The notes beneath the pieces are model-generated. The model saw only the letters and a list, made by a program, of their open reading frames with translations, did no database searches and was not told the origin of the DNA. Shown piece by piece: positions 52,653 through 56,437 of a stretch of 56,437 nt of DNA. Positions within the stretch are counted from its first letter, which is position 1. Each line of letters starts with the position of its first letter. Origin of the DNA: Aequorivita antarctica (GTDB taxonomy: Bacteria; Bacteroidota; Bacteroidia; Flavobacteriales; Flavobacteriaceae); contig NZ_VORT01000015.1 in assembly GCF_007997155.1 (NCBI RefSeq), positions 1-56,437 on the forward strand, written 5' to 3'. The position numbers and the translations under genes were made by a program.

Positions 52653-53143
52653 AAGATTAAGTTTTTAAAACCATTATGAATTAGAAGATAAATTGAATTA
52701 CTAGTGGGTTTGTTGTTTTTAAATTTAATCTGTAGGGATACAATTAAAATCTTTCATTGCTAGGGGCAAGCAATGTTTTTATTTTAGGGGATAAATAAAA
52801 AATGAACTATCTTGAGGAGAAGCTATCTTTCGCCATTATTAAACAATAATAACAACTAATTGACACCCCAAAGATAGAAAAAAGACAGAAAAGTGGTTTC
52901 TTTAAAAATAAAATAAATGCACTATTAGCCAAACGGTTAGAGTTTATCGGTTAAATACACTTTTTTTTCTTTTTTTTTTAAACCTCTGTAAGAATTTTCA
53001 TGTTTTTTTAAAAAAAACACTCCCATTGCCAAGCAAATTCTAAAAAAATCAACCCAAAAAAGGACACTTTTTAAATTATCTTGAAGGCTATTGCACAAGA
53101 AAAAATTAAGACCTTGTGTTTAAAGAATAATTTAGCCTTAATA
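52653..53143. other. Gene-free AT-rich stretch upstream of the capsule cluster
   Basis: No credible gene is present. It must hold the promoter of the minus-strand capsule operon, but I found no exact TAnnTTTG with suitable spacing. A poly-T/C tract (about 52960-52980) and the duplicated GGTTA motifs near 52938-52956 are the only marked features. No JUMPstart element was seen. Confidence 0.5.
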
Positions 53144-53174
53144 AAAAAGGTCGACTTTTTAAGTCGACCTTTTT
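53144..53174 (-). terminator. Terminator behind the tRNA 3' fragment
   Basis: AAAAAGGTCGACTT and AAGTCGACCTTTTT form a perfect 14-bp stem with a 3-base loop, 13 bases after the tRNA-like 3' end. It is A/T-flanked on both sides, so it can work in both directions. Confidence 0.8.
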
Positions 53175-53187
53175 GGAGAAAATCTAG

Positions 53188-53234
53188 TAGCGGGAATTGG
53201 ACTCGAACCAATGTCCGCCAAGGCGGTTATGAGC
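53188..53234 (-). pseudogene. Truncated tRNA (Met-like, CAU anticodon loop) 3' half: island attachment scar
   Basis: On the minus strand the sequence gives an anticodon-loop-like CTCATAA, then a T-arm ATTGG-TTCGAGT-CCAAT and acceptor end TCCCGCT with discriminator A, as in flavobacterial tRNA-Met. The expected 5' half (beginning AGCGGGA) is absent from the next 100 bases. The stretch between anticodon loop and T-arm (CCGCCTTGGCGGAC) is longer than normal. A terminator follows. This is what remains when an element integrates into a tRNA anticodon region, or when a tRNA duplicate decays. Confidence 0.6.
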
Positions 53235-53563
53235 TCTCAATCAATTCACTTTTTATGAATTTACGAGGGCTTCGGAACCTATATATTATGGGTTGTGTTC
53301 AAAAACGTGTTCAGTTTCGTGTTCACTCGATTAATACTTATTTGAACTGCAATATAGAAAATATTTGCCAGCTGCAACGGCCCCATTGCAGTCTAAATCA
53401 CAAATATCAAAAGGTTATAAATAATGTTGCGGCAATAATCCAAACTATCTCAAATTACTTTGAAAAAAGGGTTACACCTACAATACGCGCGAACGAAAAA
53501 ATTGCACCAGTATAAGAGCCATATTTGCAAATAGAGAATTTTATAATTTAGGTTTTTAGTATT
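53235..53563. other. Gene-free stretch inside the island boundary
   Basis: No convincing gene is seen on either strand. A short direct reiteration of GTGTTCA (GTGTTCAAAAACGTGTTCAG...GTGTTCAC, about 53294-53328) is the only marked feature and could be a protein-binding site. Confidence 0.4.
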
Positions 53564-53917
53564 TTATCTTTTCCTTACAATCAAAATTTCATCATCCGAA
53601 AATTCCATCCAGGCAATGTCGTAGAGGTAATGGAACATCTTATTATGTGAATTGATATGAAAATGGGTATGGTATTTAAACCTAAACCTTTTCTTTTCGA
53701 GTACATTTCTGTACACCTTAACCTGGGCTTTATTTTCACCTAGCAATTCTGAAAGGATGGAATAGTTGCGTTTTAGATAGCTGTTAATTTCAATTGCTGC
53801 CTTTTTCGCCTCATAGCGAAGGTGTTTGTGGTAATGGTTTTTACAGTCTGTGGAACAGAATATTTTATCGGCCCTTCCTTTAAGGGGGCTGGAACATATT
53901 TTGCACTTTCGTTCCAT
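53564..53917 (-). CDS. Small zinc-ribbon protein divergent from the recombinase
   Basis: The 117-residue protein opens with a treble-clef or zinc-ribbon unit, CKICSSPLKGRADKIFCSTDC, then a basic helical part (KNHYHKHLRYEAKKAA), and ends with FRFKYHTHFHINSH and MFHYLYDIAWMEFSDDEILIVRK. I do not recognise a named family, though similar small zinc proteins occur in flavobacteria. It is transcribed away from the recombinase gene across a 122-bp gap with inverted repeats. It could be a DNA-binding regulator or accessory factor; this is inference from position and charge. Confidence 0.72.
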   Translation of the reverse strand: MERKCKICSSPLKGRADKIFCSTDCKNHYHKHLRYEAKKAAIEINSYLKRNYSILSELLGENKAQVKVYRNVLEKKRFRFKYHTHFHINSHNKMFHYLYDIAWMEFSDDEILIVRKR

Positions 53918-54039: not shown

Positions 54040-55170
54040 ATGCCGGAAAACCTTGTTATAATACTATTTCGTCCCGTTGCCAATGCGGGCCGTATTAAAT
54101 TTCGTATTCCCTACCAAATGAAAGCGGAACGGGAGGCGTTCAAAAAGTTGGGTGGGGCCTTTTACCACTACAATCAGAGATTATGGAGCCTACCCAATAC
54201 CCCTGCTAATATGGCACAGGCAGATGCGCTTTTTGGAAAAAAAATGATTGTAGAGGAAACCGTACTTCCTTCCGTAATACCACAATTTAAGGTTTCTGAA
54301 AAAATGCAGGAGGAATTGGATCGCAACCACCAAAAGATGCACTTAAAGGGATTTAGTGAAGCTACCATACGCAATTACCAGAGTAACCTAACGCAGTTCT
54401 TTAAATATTTTGAGGGCGCGGAGTATCGGGAAATCACTAAGGAGCAAATTGAGGGGTTTGTGTATTATTTAATCAGTAAATACAAGATTAGTGAGCAAAA
54501 GCAGAACCAGCTCATAAATGCCATTAAGTGCTATTATGAGCATAGCTTGGGTATGCCACGGGAATATTATAATATAACGCGCCCCACCAAGAGCAAAGAC
54601 CTGCCCAACATACTGAGTGAGGGTGAGGTTAGGGCAATCATCAATTTTCCAACGAATACAAAGCACCGTGCCATACTCCATACCATATACGGGGCAGGCT
54701 TGCGGGTAGGTGAGTTAATAAGGCTGAGGGTAAAAGATATACGCAGTGCCGACGGTTATATTTTTATAAAAGATGCCAAAGGCAAGAAGGACCGCCATAC
54801 TGTTTTGAGCCCCTTTCTATTAGAACTATTGCGATCTTATTTTAAGGAATACAAACCGAGCTATTGGCTTTTCGAGGGCCAAGATGGCGGACAGTATACT
54901 GCCCAGAGCGTGCAGCGCATATACCGCCAGGCCGTTAAGGGAACCAACAGCAATCCATGGAGTACGCCTCATACCTTGCGGCACAGTTTTGCTACCCACC
55001 TGATGGAACACGGGGTAAACATACGTTATATACAGAGTGCCCTTGGCCATGCAAGCACCAAGACCACGGAAATTTACACCAGAGTAATAGGGATTAGCAA
55101 CAAAACATTGAAGAGCCCATTGGATAGCTTGTATGAAACGGCTATATTTGAAAAAGACAAACAAAAATGA
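54040..55170 (+). CDS. Integron-integrase-like tyrosine recombinase with extra N-terminal domain
   Basis: The 376-residue protein has three parts. Residues 1-75 form an extra domain (GRIKFRIPYQMKAEREAFKKLGG, HYNQRLWSLPNT) that resembles the HARP single-strand/fork-binding motif. About 88-175 is a SAM-like core-binding domain (MHLKGFSEATIRNYQSNLTQFF). About 190-365 is the catalytic domain with all active-site residues: R in GAGLRVGELIRL, K in DAKGKKDRH, HTLRHSFATHLM, ALGHAST and the nucleophile in EIYTRV. It ends KTLKSPLDSLYE; SPLD is also found near the end of class integron integrases. The IntI-specific insertion before the HxxR box is not evident. It lies in the same direction as, and directly before, a cassette array. 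Confidence 0.9.
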   Translation: MPENLVIILFRPVANAGRIKFRIPYQMKAEREAFKKLGGAFYHYNQRLWSLPNTPANMAQADALFGKKMIVEETVLPSVIPQFKVSEKMQEELDRNHQKMHLKGFSEATIRNYQSNLTQFFKYFEGAEYREITKEQIEGFVYYLISKYKISEQKQNQLINAIKCYYEHSLGMPREYYNITRPTKSKDLPNILSEGEVRAIINFPTNTKHRAILHTIYGAGLRVGELIRLRVKDIRSADGYIFIKDAKGKKDRHTVLSPFLLELLRSYFKEYKPSYWLFEGQDGGQYTAQSVQRIYRQAVKGTNSNPWSTPHTLRHSFATHLMEHGVNIRYIQSALGHASTKTTEIYTRVIGISNKTLKSPLDSLYETAIFEKDKQK

Positions 55171-55228
55171 CATGGGGTACATGTGCGATATATACGTCAC
55201 TCCTATGTTGTATATATACATGTTGTGC
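55171..55228 (+). other. Candidate primary insertion site (attI-like) after the recombinase stop
   Basis: Starting right after the recombinase stop, this 58-bp stretch has no left palindromic arm but ends in the same GTTGTG core found at the right end of cassette site 1. It also contains an earlier GTTG 15 bases upstream (55207-55210 and 55222-55225) and a 12-bp palindrome TGTATATATACA (55209-55220) between them. It marks the junction with cassette 1. The equivalence to attI is inferred from position. Confidence 0.55.
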
Positions 55229-55757
55229 TTCATGCAAGAAAAACCGAAAAATGAGATTTTGGATTAAAAGAATATTAATATTAAGTATTGTTTGCTTGTC
55301 TTTTTCTTGTGGAAAACAAGAGAAATTTGAGAGCGGAAAATGGAAACAAGGCGGAGGGGAAAATTTGTTGACGGAAATAAGATTGAATATGACCGAAGAC
55401 TTAATTAATAGTAAAATTCTCATTGGAAAGAATCAAACAGAAATTTACGAATTATTAGGGAATCCTGAACCAGTCAACACCTATTCAGAATCCGATACAA
55501 AATTTTATCCTGTAATGGAAAAGTATAAATGGAATGTTGACCCCGATGAATTAATATATCTTGAAGTAAATTTTAGTAAGGAGGGTTTAGCTGAAAATAT
55601 AAAAGTTTATAAGACAAAATAAAGCACGAAAGCACAACACAGTATATAAGCTATGGCTTGGTCAGTCCTCACTTGGAAAATCCTGCGGATTTTCCAAAGC
55701 CAGTTTTTATTTGGAGAGGTTCGTGCTAAATCACGCCACAGCTCATATACATAAACG
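55223..55757 (+). mobile_element. Cassette 1 of an integron-like array (about 535 bp)
   Basis: The unit runs from the TT of the first GTTGTG core to the G of the core ending site 1, taking cleavage between G and TT as in integrons (inference). Its first bases, GTTGTGCTT (55222-55230), are the exact reverse complement of AAGCACAAC (55630-55638), the outer left arm of its own terminal site. It holds one gene (a lipoprotein) in array orientation, followed 10 bases later by the site, and no promoter of its own is visible in the 28 bases before the gene. Confidence 0.72.
55251..55622 (+). CDS. Cassette-borne small lipoprotein
   Basis: The 123-residue protein starts at ATG 55251 with a lipoprotein signal (ILILSIVCLSFSCGK, lipobox cysteine 20). 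The frame continues upstream to 55167, but that part crosses the cassette boundary and cannot belong to the gene. The mature part has IGKNQTEIYELLGNPEPV, reminiscent of the helix-turn seen in BamE/SmpA-like lipoproteins, and ends in beta-strand-like YLEVNFSKEGLAENIKVYK. Function is unknown. The start is only 28 bases inside the cassette, typical of cassette genes that rely on outside transcription. Confidence 0.75.
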   Translation: MRFWIKRILILSIVCLSFSCGKQEKFESGKWKQGGGENLLTEIRLNMTEDLINSKILIGKNQTEIYELLGNPEPVNTYSESDTKFYPVMEKYKWNVDPDELIYLEVNFSKEGLAENIKVYKTK

Positions 55758-55763
55758 TTGTGG
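55630..55763 (+). repeat. Cassette recombination site 1 (attC-like imperfect palindrome)
   Basis: The outer arms are AAGCACAAC (55630-55638) and GTTGTGG (55757-55763). The inner arms are GTATATAAGCTATGGC (55642-55657) and GCCACAGCTCATATAC (55735-55750), complementary at 14 of 16 positions. Between them is a perfect central hairpin, TTGGAAAATCC-tgc-GGATTTTCCAA (55673-55697). The layout (two pairs of arms around a variable centre, CAAC...GTTG ends) parallels integron attC sites, but the box sequences differ. Confidence 0.75.
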
Positions 55764-56312
55764 GGCAGTTGATCTAAAAAAAAGCAGAACGCATAAGGAT
55801 CCATAAAAAGGGTTCGGACTTTTCCGCCAGGACGAAAACACGGTTTTTGGGCGGGAAACCGCAAAATCCCCACAAAGGCAATCGTTTATTTGCAGAGGAT
55901 AGTAGAATGATTCTTTGGATGAAGATTTTTTTGGCAGTCGTATATTTTCGAAATCAAAGCTTGGGATTTTGCGGTTCCGATGGAGGCCATTTCCTTTTTG
56001 CGGGCGATAGTTGAGCCAATCAGTACGCTCAATCGAAGTAGGTGTATATTTACTAACAATCAAAAACCGTGTTTTCGGCAAGCCTCGAAGGCCAGTTCAT
56101 ATCAGCAAAGTTTCCGGAAAAAGGGAAAACCGCCCCACAACACGGGCTATAAGCAATGCTGGGTATGTGTTTAATTCAAAAGCAGTTGTATATTTACAAA
56201 GTCACCAAAACTTCATTTTGGCGAATAGAATAATAAGTAAAAAATAAAGTTTTGGCTTAGTGCGAGCTTCGAAAATCAGTTCATTTTTGGCGCACTGCTC
56301 ATAGCCCAACCG
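55758..56312 (+). mobile_element. Cassette 2 of the array (about 555 bp), without a clear gene
   Basis: The unit begins GTTGTGGGGC (55757-55766, including the preceding G). This is the exact reverse complement of GCCCCACAAC (56132-56141), the outer left arm of its own terminal site. Short frames exist on both strands (the longest about 112 codons on the minus strand), but none has convincing protein character. Instead it contains long nested inverted repeats. It may carry a structured RNA, a decayed gene or a fused remnant of an older site. Confidence 0.68.
55833..56077. repeat. Nested perfect inverted repeats inside cassette 2
   Basis: The outer pair is CGAAAACACGGTTTTTG (55833-55849) with CAAAAACCGTGTTTTCG (56061-56077), 17 bp perfect. 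The inner pair is AACCGCAAAATCCC (55857-55870) with GGGATTTTGCGGTT (55963-55976), 14 bp perfect. They are nested in order, so the strand can fold into one long two-helix arm. Confidence 0.85.
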
Positions 56313-56321
56313 TTGCCACCC
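56132..56321 (+). repeat. Cassette recombination site 2 (attC-like imperfect palindrome)
   Basis: The inner arms are GGGCTATAAGCAATGC (56144-56159) and GCACTGCTCATAGCCC (56292-56307), again complementary at 14 of 16 positions. The outer left arm is GCCCCACAAC (56132-56141). The right core is GTTGCCACCC (56312-56321), which does not match the left arm beyond GTTG, as expected if those bases belong to the next cassette. The centre is longer than in site 1 (total about 190 bp) and contains a CCAAAA/TTTTGG hairpin (56204-56220). Confidence 0.75.
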
Positions 56322-56437
56322 ATTTGAGAAAAATCCCGCAAACATTGAAAAACCCAAAGGACACGACGGAAAAATGAAATTGTGAACGGAATTAAAAATG
56401 CGGAATTAACACGCTGAACCGAATGCCAAACCAAATG
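56313..56437 (+). mobile_element. Start of cassette 3 (cut by the window edge)
   Basis: The sequence after the G of site 2 begins TTGCCACCC. No gene start can be assigned in the remaining 125 bases: ATG codons at 56374 and later lead to immediate stops. If the rule seen in cassettes 1 and 2 holds, this cassette's own site should begin with GGGTGGCAAC. Confidence 0.5.

What the first reader, a model, noticed from the sequence alone, without database searches (positions are those of the whole stretch)
54040..56437. Integron-like gene-capture system: recombinase followed by an array of cassettes with attC-like sites
Seen: a complete tyrosine recombinase is followed directly by at least two units of about 540 bp. 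Each ends in a long imperfect palindrome with CAAC...GTTG ends and paired inner arms. Known: classical integrons pair an IntI recombinase with attC-bearing cassettes. Inferred: this is a Bacteroidota gene-cassette system with its own box sequences, distinct N-terminal recombinase domain and different gene order. The array extends beyond the window.
Basis: partly seen in the sequence, partly recalled or inferred. Interest (0 to 1): 0.95.

Follow-up and report, generated by a model that had tools for sequence, protein, structure and literature searches.

The report
Overlooked integron-like gene capture in Bacteroidota
This bacterial genome carries a recombinase gene followed by gene cassettes whose ends are complementary as those of integrons are, and the same arrangement recurs across the phylum Bacteroidota with a recombinase that lacks the extra region defining integron integrases, so it is likely a separate, overlooked system for capturing and shuffling genes.

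Summary
The window is a whole contig that ends inside an array: recombinase (54040-55170), an attI-like site (GTT at 55222), two complete cassettes (535 and 555 bp) and the start of a third. A covariance model of the sites hits 140 of 296 Bacteroidota genomes and 0 of 18 other genomes, 7 of which carry a true IntI. A complete genome of the same genus has 70 sites in 69 kb, all in one orientation, beside a recombinase. Each cassette's start is complementary to its own end in 191 of 201 cases (106 of 112 distinct), against a shuffled mean of 13. An attI-like site lies 43-95 nt behind the recombinase in 24 of 25 loci. Sites co-occur with this recombinase family (82 of its 95 genomes), not with IntI (35 of 85). 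The recombinase lacks the roughly 42-residue IntI region, and the sites carry conserved A×C mismatches in place of the classical extrahelical base. Verdict: an integron-like system with its own integrase lineage and site code. Recombination itself is inferred, not shown.

The parts
54040..55170 (+). Tyrosine recombinase of an XerA/IntI-like clade: extra N-terminal domain (about residues 1-80), SAM-like domain, catalytic domain (R222, K250, H311, R314, H337, Y346; catalytic roles recalled from the family), no IntI insertion
55177..55224 (+). attI-like site: GTACATGTGCGATATATACGTCACTCC...GTATATATACAT|GTT, crossover expected at or next to 55222
   Evidence: Placed by complementarity 43-95 nt behind the recombinase in 24 of 25 loci; exact limits inferred
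55223..55757 (+). Cassette 1 (535 bp); ends complementary (GTTGTGCTT / AAGCACAAC)
55251..55622 (+). ORF of cassette 1: 123-aa lipoprotein-like product (lipobox recalled); only a weak BamE match in Pfam, below cut-off; start codon uncertain
55636..55759 (+). attC-like site 1, 124 nt (stem TATATAAGCTATGGC / GCCACAGCTCATATA with two A×C positions)
   Evidence: 103.4 bits
55758..56312 (+). Cassette 2 (555 bp), probably non-coding, ends complementary (GTTGTGGGGC / GCCCCACAAC), with long nested hairpins
56139..56314 (+). attC-like site 2, 176 nt
   Evidence: 53.7 bits
56313..56437 (+). Start of cassette 3, cut by the contig end

Best explanation
The window holds a recombinase gene, an attI-like site and an array of gene cassettes ending in attC-like hairpin sites, which together likely form an integron-like gene-capture system run by a recombinase lineage outside the integron integrases (IntI). 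Shown by sequence: the order recombinase, attI-like site, cassette, attC, cassette, attC; one orientation; complementary ends within each cassette; single cassettes shared between genomes with the match ending close to the cassette ends; co-occurrence of sites with this recombinase family. Inferred: the recombinase cuts next to the GTT, frees cassettes as circles in which the two complementary ends come together as the outer stem of a folded hairpin, and inserts them at attI just behind its own gene or at attI-like secondary sites. Also inferred: the folded bottom strand is the substrate. The conserved A×C mismatches of the top strand become G-T wobble pairs on the bottom strand, which would mark the strand the way extrahelical bases do in classical attC sites, and would explain why a recombinase without the IntI-specific helix can serve them.
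For: Cassette-end complementarity: 191 of 201 cassettes (106 of 112 distinct end pairs) match at 5 or more of 6 variable positions, shuffled mean 13, maximum 24; in 20 stretches of 16 further genomes 96 of 123, shuffled mean 7.5, maximum 19. This was not used to find the sites. Among kept sites no locus was mixed in orientation: 35 of 35 and 19 of 19 loci with two or more sites. attI-like site within 95 nt of the recombinase end in 24 of 25 loci. Sites and recombinase family co-occur: 82 genomes with both, odds ratio 15.6, p = 1.7e-21; by genus 54 of 65, odds ratio 7.4. Sites do not track IntI: odds ratio 0.71. No IntI over cut-off in 39 genomes, this one and its relatives. Three cassettes shared at 88-98% with boundaries close to the cassette ends. 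Stem covariation in 13 of 14 pairs, score 0.626 against 0.134 shuffled. Bottom strand more stable in 243 of 257. Longest ORF on the array strand in 273 of 310 distinct cassettes with an ORF of 60 aa or more; 22 more have none.
Against: No recombination was observed; nothing here shows excision circles or strand choice. Of the 33 Bacteroidota loci with a related recombinase, 19 show R1 sites downstream; 12 of the other 14 end within 2.3 kb, but L115 and L118 have 10 kb without any R1 site. 58 of 140 genomes with sites lack a family match at E <= 1e-60, and 13 of 60 with five or more sites lack both the family and IntI. Genome G235 also has 298-aa relatives (about 221 bits) inside or behind site clusters, not at their head. 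Many sites are scattered, and only 7 of 23 scattered sites tested gave a clear cassette start. The first detector penalised A/G and C/T arm mismatches less, and stem pairing was itself a search criterion, so the covariation and A×C counts lean that way; a re-alignment with equal mismatch costs still gave 379 A×C of 498 mismatches. Only 4 of 348 cassettes' pairings across genomes were close enough to count, and the fourth does not match end to end.
Confidence: 0.86

Rival explanations
1. A classical integron whose IntI and attC are merely divergent: same enzyme family, same site code.
For: Same logic (attI, array, R'/R'' pairing); TIGR02249 is the second-best NCBIfam match (190.8 bits); the family and IntI lie together apart from the XerC/D-type rows (98/96).
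Against: TIGR02249 cut-off (265) not reached; matches break at profile positions 182-239. Lys to HxxRH distance is 63-65 residues against 105-106 in IntI. IntI is its own clade, 100/99. R' fits GTTRRRY in 11 of 112 distinct cases. R1 finds nothing in 18 genomes, 7 with a true IntI, and does not track IntI inside Bacteroidota.
Confidence: 0.1
2. The hairpins are repeats (terminators, REP-like or MITE-like) that collect behind the recombinase by chance; the recombinase serves an unrelated element.
For: Some sites are scattered in the genome; the hairpins are strong and lie between genes.
Against: Complementarity runs across the gene between two different sites, not within a site (5.79 of 6 within a cassette against 2.61 within one attC). 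Fixed orientation, attI-like site, co-occurrence with the recombinase by genus, homology bounded by cassette ends.
Confidence: 0.03
3. The system captures cassettes but by ordinary double-strand recombination, like Xer on dif, and the hairpin is a by-product of two inverted binding boxes.
For: The catalytic part resembles XerA (5hxy, E 3.9e-18) and lacks the IntI region that holds the helix docking extrahelical bases (PMC7790495, passages).
Against: Long stems are kept by compensatory change; the asymmetry nearly always favours folding of one strand (243 of 257); the attI-like sites do not fit the attC model (none was an R1 match).
Confidence: 0.15

Closest known systems
Chromosomal integrons with IntI, attI and attC
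   Same: Recombinase, attI, one-way array of short cassettes, sites folding as R''-spacer-L'' ... L'-spacer-R', cassette ends complementary; single cassettes outside arrays (for classical integrons recalled)
   Different: Recombinase outside the IntI clade and without the IntI region; gene points towards the array in the long form; R' mostly not GTTRRRY; conserved A×C mismatches instead of an unopposed base in L''
CALIN, clusters of attC lacking IntI (IntegronFinder 2.0, PMC9024848, passages seen)
   Same: Arrays of attC-like sites in genomes without IntI
   Different: Here a non-IntI recombinase sits at the head of the array; [quoted passage not shown]
XerA-type recombinases (NF040815; 5hxy, 4a8e)
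   Same: Closest catalytic core by profile and fold
   Different: Extra N-terminal domain; linked to cassette arrays rather than to a single dif-like site (the latter recalled)
IS elements and group II introns known from attC sites of classical integrons (recalled)
   Same: Here too an IS sits in attC-like sites, and an IS110 and a group II intron lie in a plasmid array
   Different: The IS in this genome is of the DDE_Tnp_1_6/DUF772 type (read from the copy in L179)

Membership tests
Classical integron (IntI system) | Integrase with the IntI-specific additional region (I2) | tested here: not met
   Lys-motif to HxxRH 63-65 residues in all 25 of 26 family rows where both motifs were found, 105-106 in the 5 of 8 IntI rows where found, 65-66 in two XerA-like rows; profile match broken at 182-239
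Classical integron (IntI system) | TIGR02249 over its curated cut-off (265 bits) | tested here: not met
   190.8 bits; IntI1 control 508.6
Classical integron (IntI system) | Recombinase inside the monophyletic IntI clade | tested here: not met
   IntI clade 100/99 excludes it; wider backbone unresolved, long branches flagged
Classical integron (IntI system) | R' box GTTRRRY (consensus recalled) | tested here: not met
   11 of 112 distinct cassette starts fit; GTT itself is kept
Classical integron (IntI system) | Unopposed (extrahelical) base in L'' | tested here: not met
   0 unopposed L'' bases in 204 distinct sites, 21 unopposed L' bases; A×C mismatch instead (gap cost above mismatch cost). 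A×C at one position in 43 of 43 aligned sites
Classical integron (IntI system) | attI beside the integrase gene, array running away from it | tested here: met
   24 of 25 loci
Classical integron (IntI system) | Complementary ends within each cassette, ORFs mostly in one direction | tested here: met
Classical integron (IntI system) | Recombination of the folded bottom strand of attC | not testable with these tools
   Only folding energies
XerA equivalog NF040815 | Score over cut-off (220 bits) | tested here: not met
   Window 197.2; two relatives pass, L196 237.4 and L210 221.5
XerC/XerD chromosome-dimer resolvases | Score over cut-off; place with Xer rows in the tree | tested here: not met
   XerD 170.9 of 329.6, XerC 162.7 of 335.15; separate from the Xer-type rows
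N-terminal domain as HARP / XPB damage-recognition type | Significant fold or profile match | tested here: inconclusive

The most novel reading that the evidence does not exclude
A second, phylum-wide class of integrons exists, its sites found in nearly half of the Bacteroidota species sampled, in which a recombinase lineage distinct from IntI handles folded single-stranded cassette sites and reads strand identity from conserved A×C / G-T positions in both boxes instead of extrahelical bases docked by the I2 helix. It would mean that the I2 helix was not the only route to single-strand cassette recombination.
Probability: 0.62. Interest if true: 0.95.

Novelty: new variant of a known kind. Interest (0 to 1): 0.92.

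Why it matters
Integrons are defined by IntI, and a survey of complete genomes found almost none in Bacteroidetes (PMC9024848, passages). A site model built here hits 140 of 296 sampled Bacteroidota genomes, so a route of gene flow in a large phylum may have gone uncounted, and attC-type arrays without IntI gain a candidate enzyme. The eLife study PMC7790495 (passages) holds that integron integrases gained single-strand recombination through the I2 helix and says that direct proof of causality is not available; a natural enzyme without that region beside hairpin arrays makes the question testable. It may also offer a compact recombinase and site code for genetics in Bacteroidota.

Tried and rejected
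Short consensus pattern: 104 hits in the genome against 115 for its reversed control, so it is no test; replaced by structure-based detection and R1. Rfam at gathering thresholds: only a tRNA elsewhere in the window, so the sites match no described RNA family at that threshold. tRNA or tmRNA at 52900-53700: ARAGORN found none. Fold of the N-terminal domain: no clear match; XPB/HARP is kept only as a lead. Classical IntI as hidden driver: rejected, although IntI is common in other Bacteroidota families (84 of 296 over cut-off). Scattered sites as pure repeats: partly rejected. Literature: ten searches listed no report of this system among the papers shown; I saw listings for all, and passages of PMC9024848, PMC8618304, PMC9668308, PMC2727003, PMC2426708 and PMC7790495. 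The library lacks most subscription papers and all preprints, so this is no proof of absence. Rows dropped before counts: 11 of 271 R1 matches (partial or odd length, among them the only two on the opposite strand, in L111 and L117); 1 of 165, 11 of 212 and, 13 of 136 cassettes without GTT at both ends, 22 of 260 sites without AAC...GTT at the ends, cassettes matching at fewer than 5 of 6.
Full report
What is there. The window is the whole of contig C6 (56,437 bp) of a 3.84-Mb genome whose nearest named recombinase relatives are Aequorivita and Gelidibacter (70-76% identity). At its right end stand a tyrosine recombinase (54040-55170), an attI-like site, cassette 1 (55223-55757), cassette 2 (55758-56312) and the start of cassette 3. 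That the contig ends inside the array fits a repeat-rich region: many relatives also break soon after the recombinase (12 of 33 Bacteroidota loci without R1 sites end within 2.3 kb of it).

The sites. A scan for AAC...GTT flanked by pairing arms, run on loci of related recombinases, gave sites in two length classes, about 124 and about 185 nt: 56 in 136 kb downstream against 4 in 303 kb upstream (33 loci). Forty-three sites of the short class align with a 14-bp L''/L' stem. Thirteen of 14 pairs show changes on both sides, 94.5% of cells pair against 66.8% when shuffled, and the covariation score is 0.626 against 0.134. Pairing was a search criterion, so these figures lean that way. Inside the stem one position is A opposite C in 43 of 43 sites, and a second in 31 of 43. 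With equal mismatch costs, 379 of 498 mismatches in 204 distinct sites are A×C.

Cassette logic. The bases after GTT at the start of a cassette are complementary to those before AAC at its end. Of 212 stretches between neighbouring sites, 201 had GTT at both ends; 177 match at all six variable positions and 191 at five or more; shuffling gives a mean of 13 and a maximum of 24. Repeated cassettes inflate this, but distinct end pairs say the same: 106 of 112. The two boxes of one and the same site match only 2.6 of 6. Position 11 of this outer stem is again a fixed mismatch, A×C in 98 of 112 distinct pairs, and position 12 mostly pairs again. Twenty stretches from 16 other genomes, chosen from the phylum scan for their sites, repeat this: 96 of 123, shuffled mean 7.5, maximum 19. 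Complementarity of the ends did not enter site detection. It is what integron cassettes show, whose site is completed by their own start when they form a circle. No locus with two or more kept sites was mixed in orientation: 35 of 35 and 19 of 19.

attI. In 25 loci with a recombinase and a first site, the start of the first cassette was placed by complementarity: 10 of 10 bases (three of them the GTT searched for) in 18, 9 in 6, 8 in 1. In 24 of 25 it lies 43-95 nt behind the end of the recombinase match or ORF (371 in L192), after an arm of the type TATAAACAT|GTT. One further locus, L107, had no R1 site. The 25 first cassettes all differ in length or start.

Spread. R1 hits 30 of 39 genomes of the relatives set, among them all 24 of the genus including this genome (counts per genome are lower bounds because candidates were capped), and 140 of 296 Bacteroidota genomes in 84 of 140 genera. 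It hits none of 18 genomes whose records are not titled Bacteroidota (one is an unplaced bacterium), 7 of which have a true IntI; the tool warns that an empty answer without a positive genome shows little by itself. In the complete genome G015, 70 full-length sites fill 69.4 kb in one orientation next to a family recombinase. A Chryseobacterium plasmid carries a relative (38%) with five sites behind it.

Which enzyme. Among the 296 genomes, sites and the recombinase family (alignment A5, E <= 1e-60; 95 genomes) occur together in 82; odds ratio 15.6, p = 1.7e-21. By genus it is 54 of 65, odds ratio 7.4, p = 1.4e-7. Sites and IntI (85 genomes with a match, 84 over cut-off) show no link: 35 together, odds ratio 0.71. 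Genomes are related, so the p-values are not those of independent samples. From lists that the tools truncated I placed by hand a family recombinase within 10 kb of a site in at least 22 genomes. The long form with the N-terminal domain points towards the array in 16 of 16 of these; the short form without it (open frames of 280-335 aa) points away, as in classical integrons (recalled), in 6 of 6. Not counted there: 298-aa copies in G235 (about 221 bits) that lie inside or behind clusters. Fifty-eight genomes with sites have no family match at that cut, and 13 of 60 genomes with five or more sites have neither family nor IntI.

The recombinase compared. It scores 190.8 bits on the integron-integrase profile (cut-off 265) and below cut-off for XerC, XerD and XerA. 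Profile matches skip positions 182-239, and the catalytic Lys to HxxRH distance is 63-65 residues in the 25 of 26 family rows measured, against 105-106 in the 5 of 8 IntI rows measured. In a 41-protein tree IntI forms its own clade (100/99). The family and IntI lie together apart from the XerC/D-type rows (98/96), with unresolved order inside and long branches flagged. The predicted structure (mean pLDDT 80, pTM 0.52) is closest to XerA and to the integron integrase 2a3v. The N-terminal domain is a small alpha-beta fold without a clear match.

Mobility. Among 348 cassettes, four pairs were shared between genomes over 80% of their length: 98.7, 96.0, 88.6 and 88.6% identity, the last between different families. 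In the first three, homology runs from 11-23 bp before the cassette start to within 3 bp of its end; the fourth is not end-to-end. Scattered sites: of 23 tested, seven had a cassette start matching at 6-7 of 7 bases with at most 4 of 200 shuffles as good; four more were interrupted by the IS and could not be read. Five of the seven starts follow flanks such as GTATATAAACAT or TAGATATAACAC, close to the attI arm (flanks judged by eye). So part of the scatter looks like single cassettes inserted at secondary attI-like sites.

Strand. Folding 257 distinct sites as they would stand in a circular cassette, with DNA parameters, the bottom strand is more stable in 243, median 3.7 kcal/mol. This follows from A×C on the top strand being G-T on the bottom. 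In classical attC sites strand choice is set mainly by extrahelical bases (PMC2727003, passages), docked by the I2 helix that IntI has (PMC7790495, passages); this enzyme lacks that region. My reading, inferred only, is that the mismatch positions take over that role.

Known or new. [quoted passage not shown] PMC9024848, passages). A review lists Bacteroidota among integron-bearing phyla (PMC8618304, passage), and IntI genes are indeed there, but none over cut-off in the 39 genomes of the relatives set. Ten literature searches listed no description of the present system. I file it as a new variant of a known kind: it works like an integron, but fails the tested features that define IntI and classical attC.

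Noticed in passing
Window genome C2, C4, C12, C13, C17, C18, C21, C23; L179 5295-6860 and 10498-12063: An IS with a DDE_Tnp_1_6/DUF772 transposase sits inside attC-like sites. All 8 right ends found in this genome abut an R1 site just after AAC (the search pattern included the flank ANNG, so copies elsewhere could be missed), and the 4 right and 5 left ends in fetched stretches do the same without that condition; apparent 4-bp duplications ACCG, AATG, ATTG.
   Followed up: partly
L210 14257-15258 and 16723-18039: On the Chryseobacterium plasmid an IS110-family transposase and a group II intron reverse transcriptase lie within the array.
   Followed up: no
window 55758-56312: Cassette 2 is apparently non-coding, carries nested inverted repeats (17 and 14 bp arms), folds far better than shuffles as RNA (z = -4.5) and has relatives in L099 (77%) and, by eye, on C17.
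   Followed up: partly
L010 267-1421 (C43, minus strand): A second family recombinase (36% identical) at the very start of contig C43 of the same genome; its downstream side is cut off.
   Followed up: partly
window 53564-53917, minus strand: Small protein with a treble-clef-like N-terminus (weak Prok-RING_1, below cut-off) upstream of and divergent from the recombinase.
   Followed up: no
G318, G199, G235: G318 and G199 have arrays but no family or IntI match at the cuts used; G235 has 298-aa recombinase copies inside or behind site clusters.
   Followed up: no
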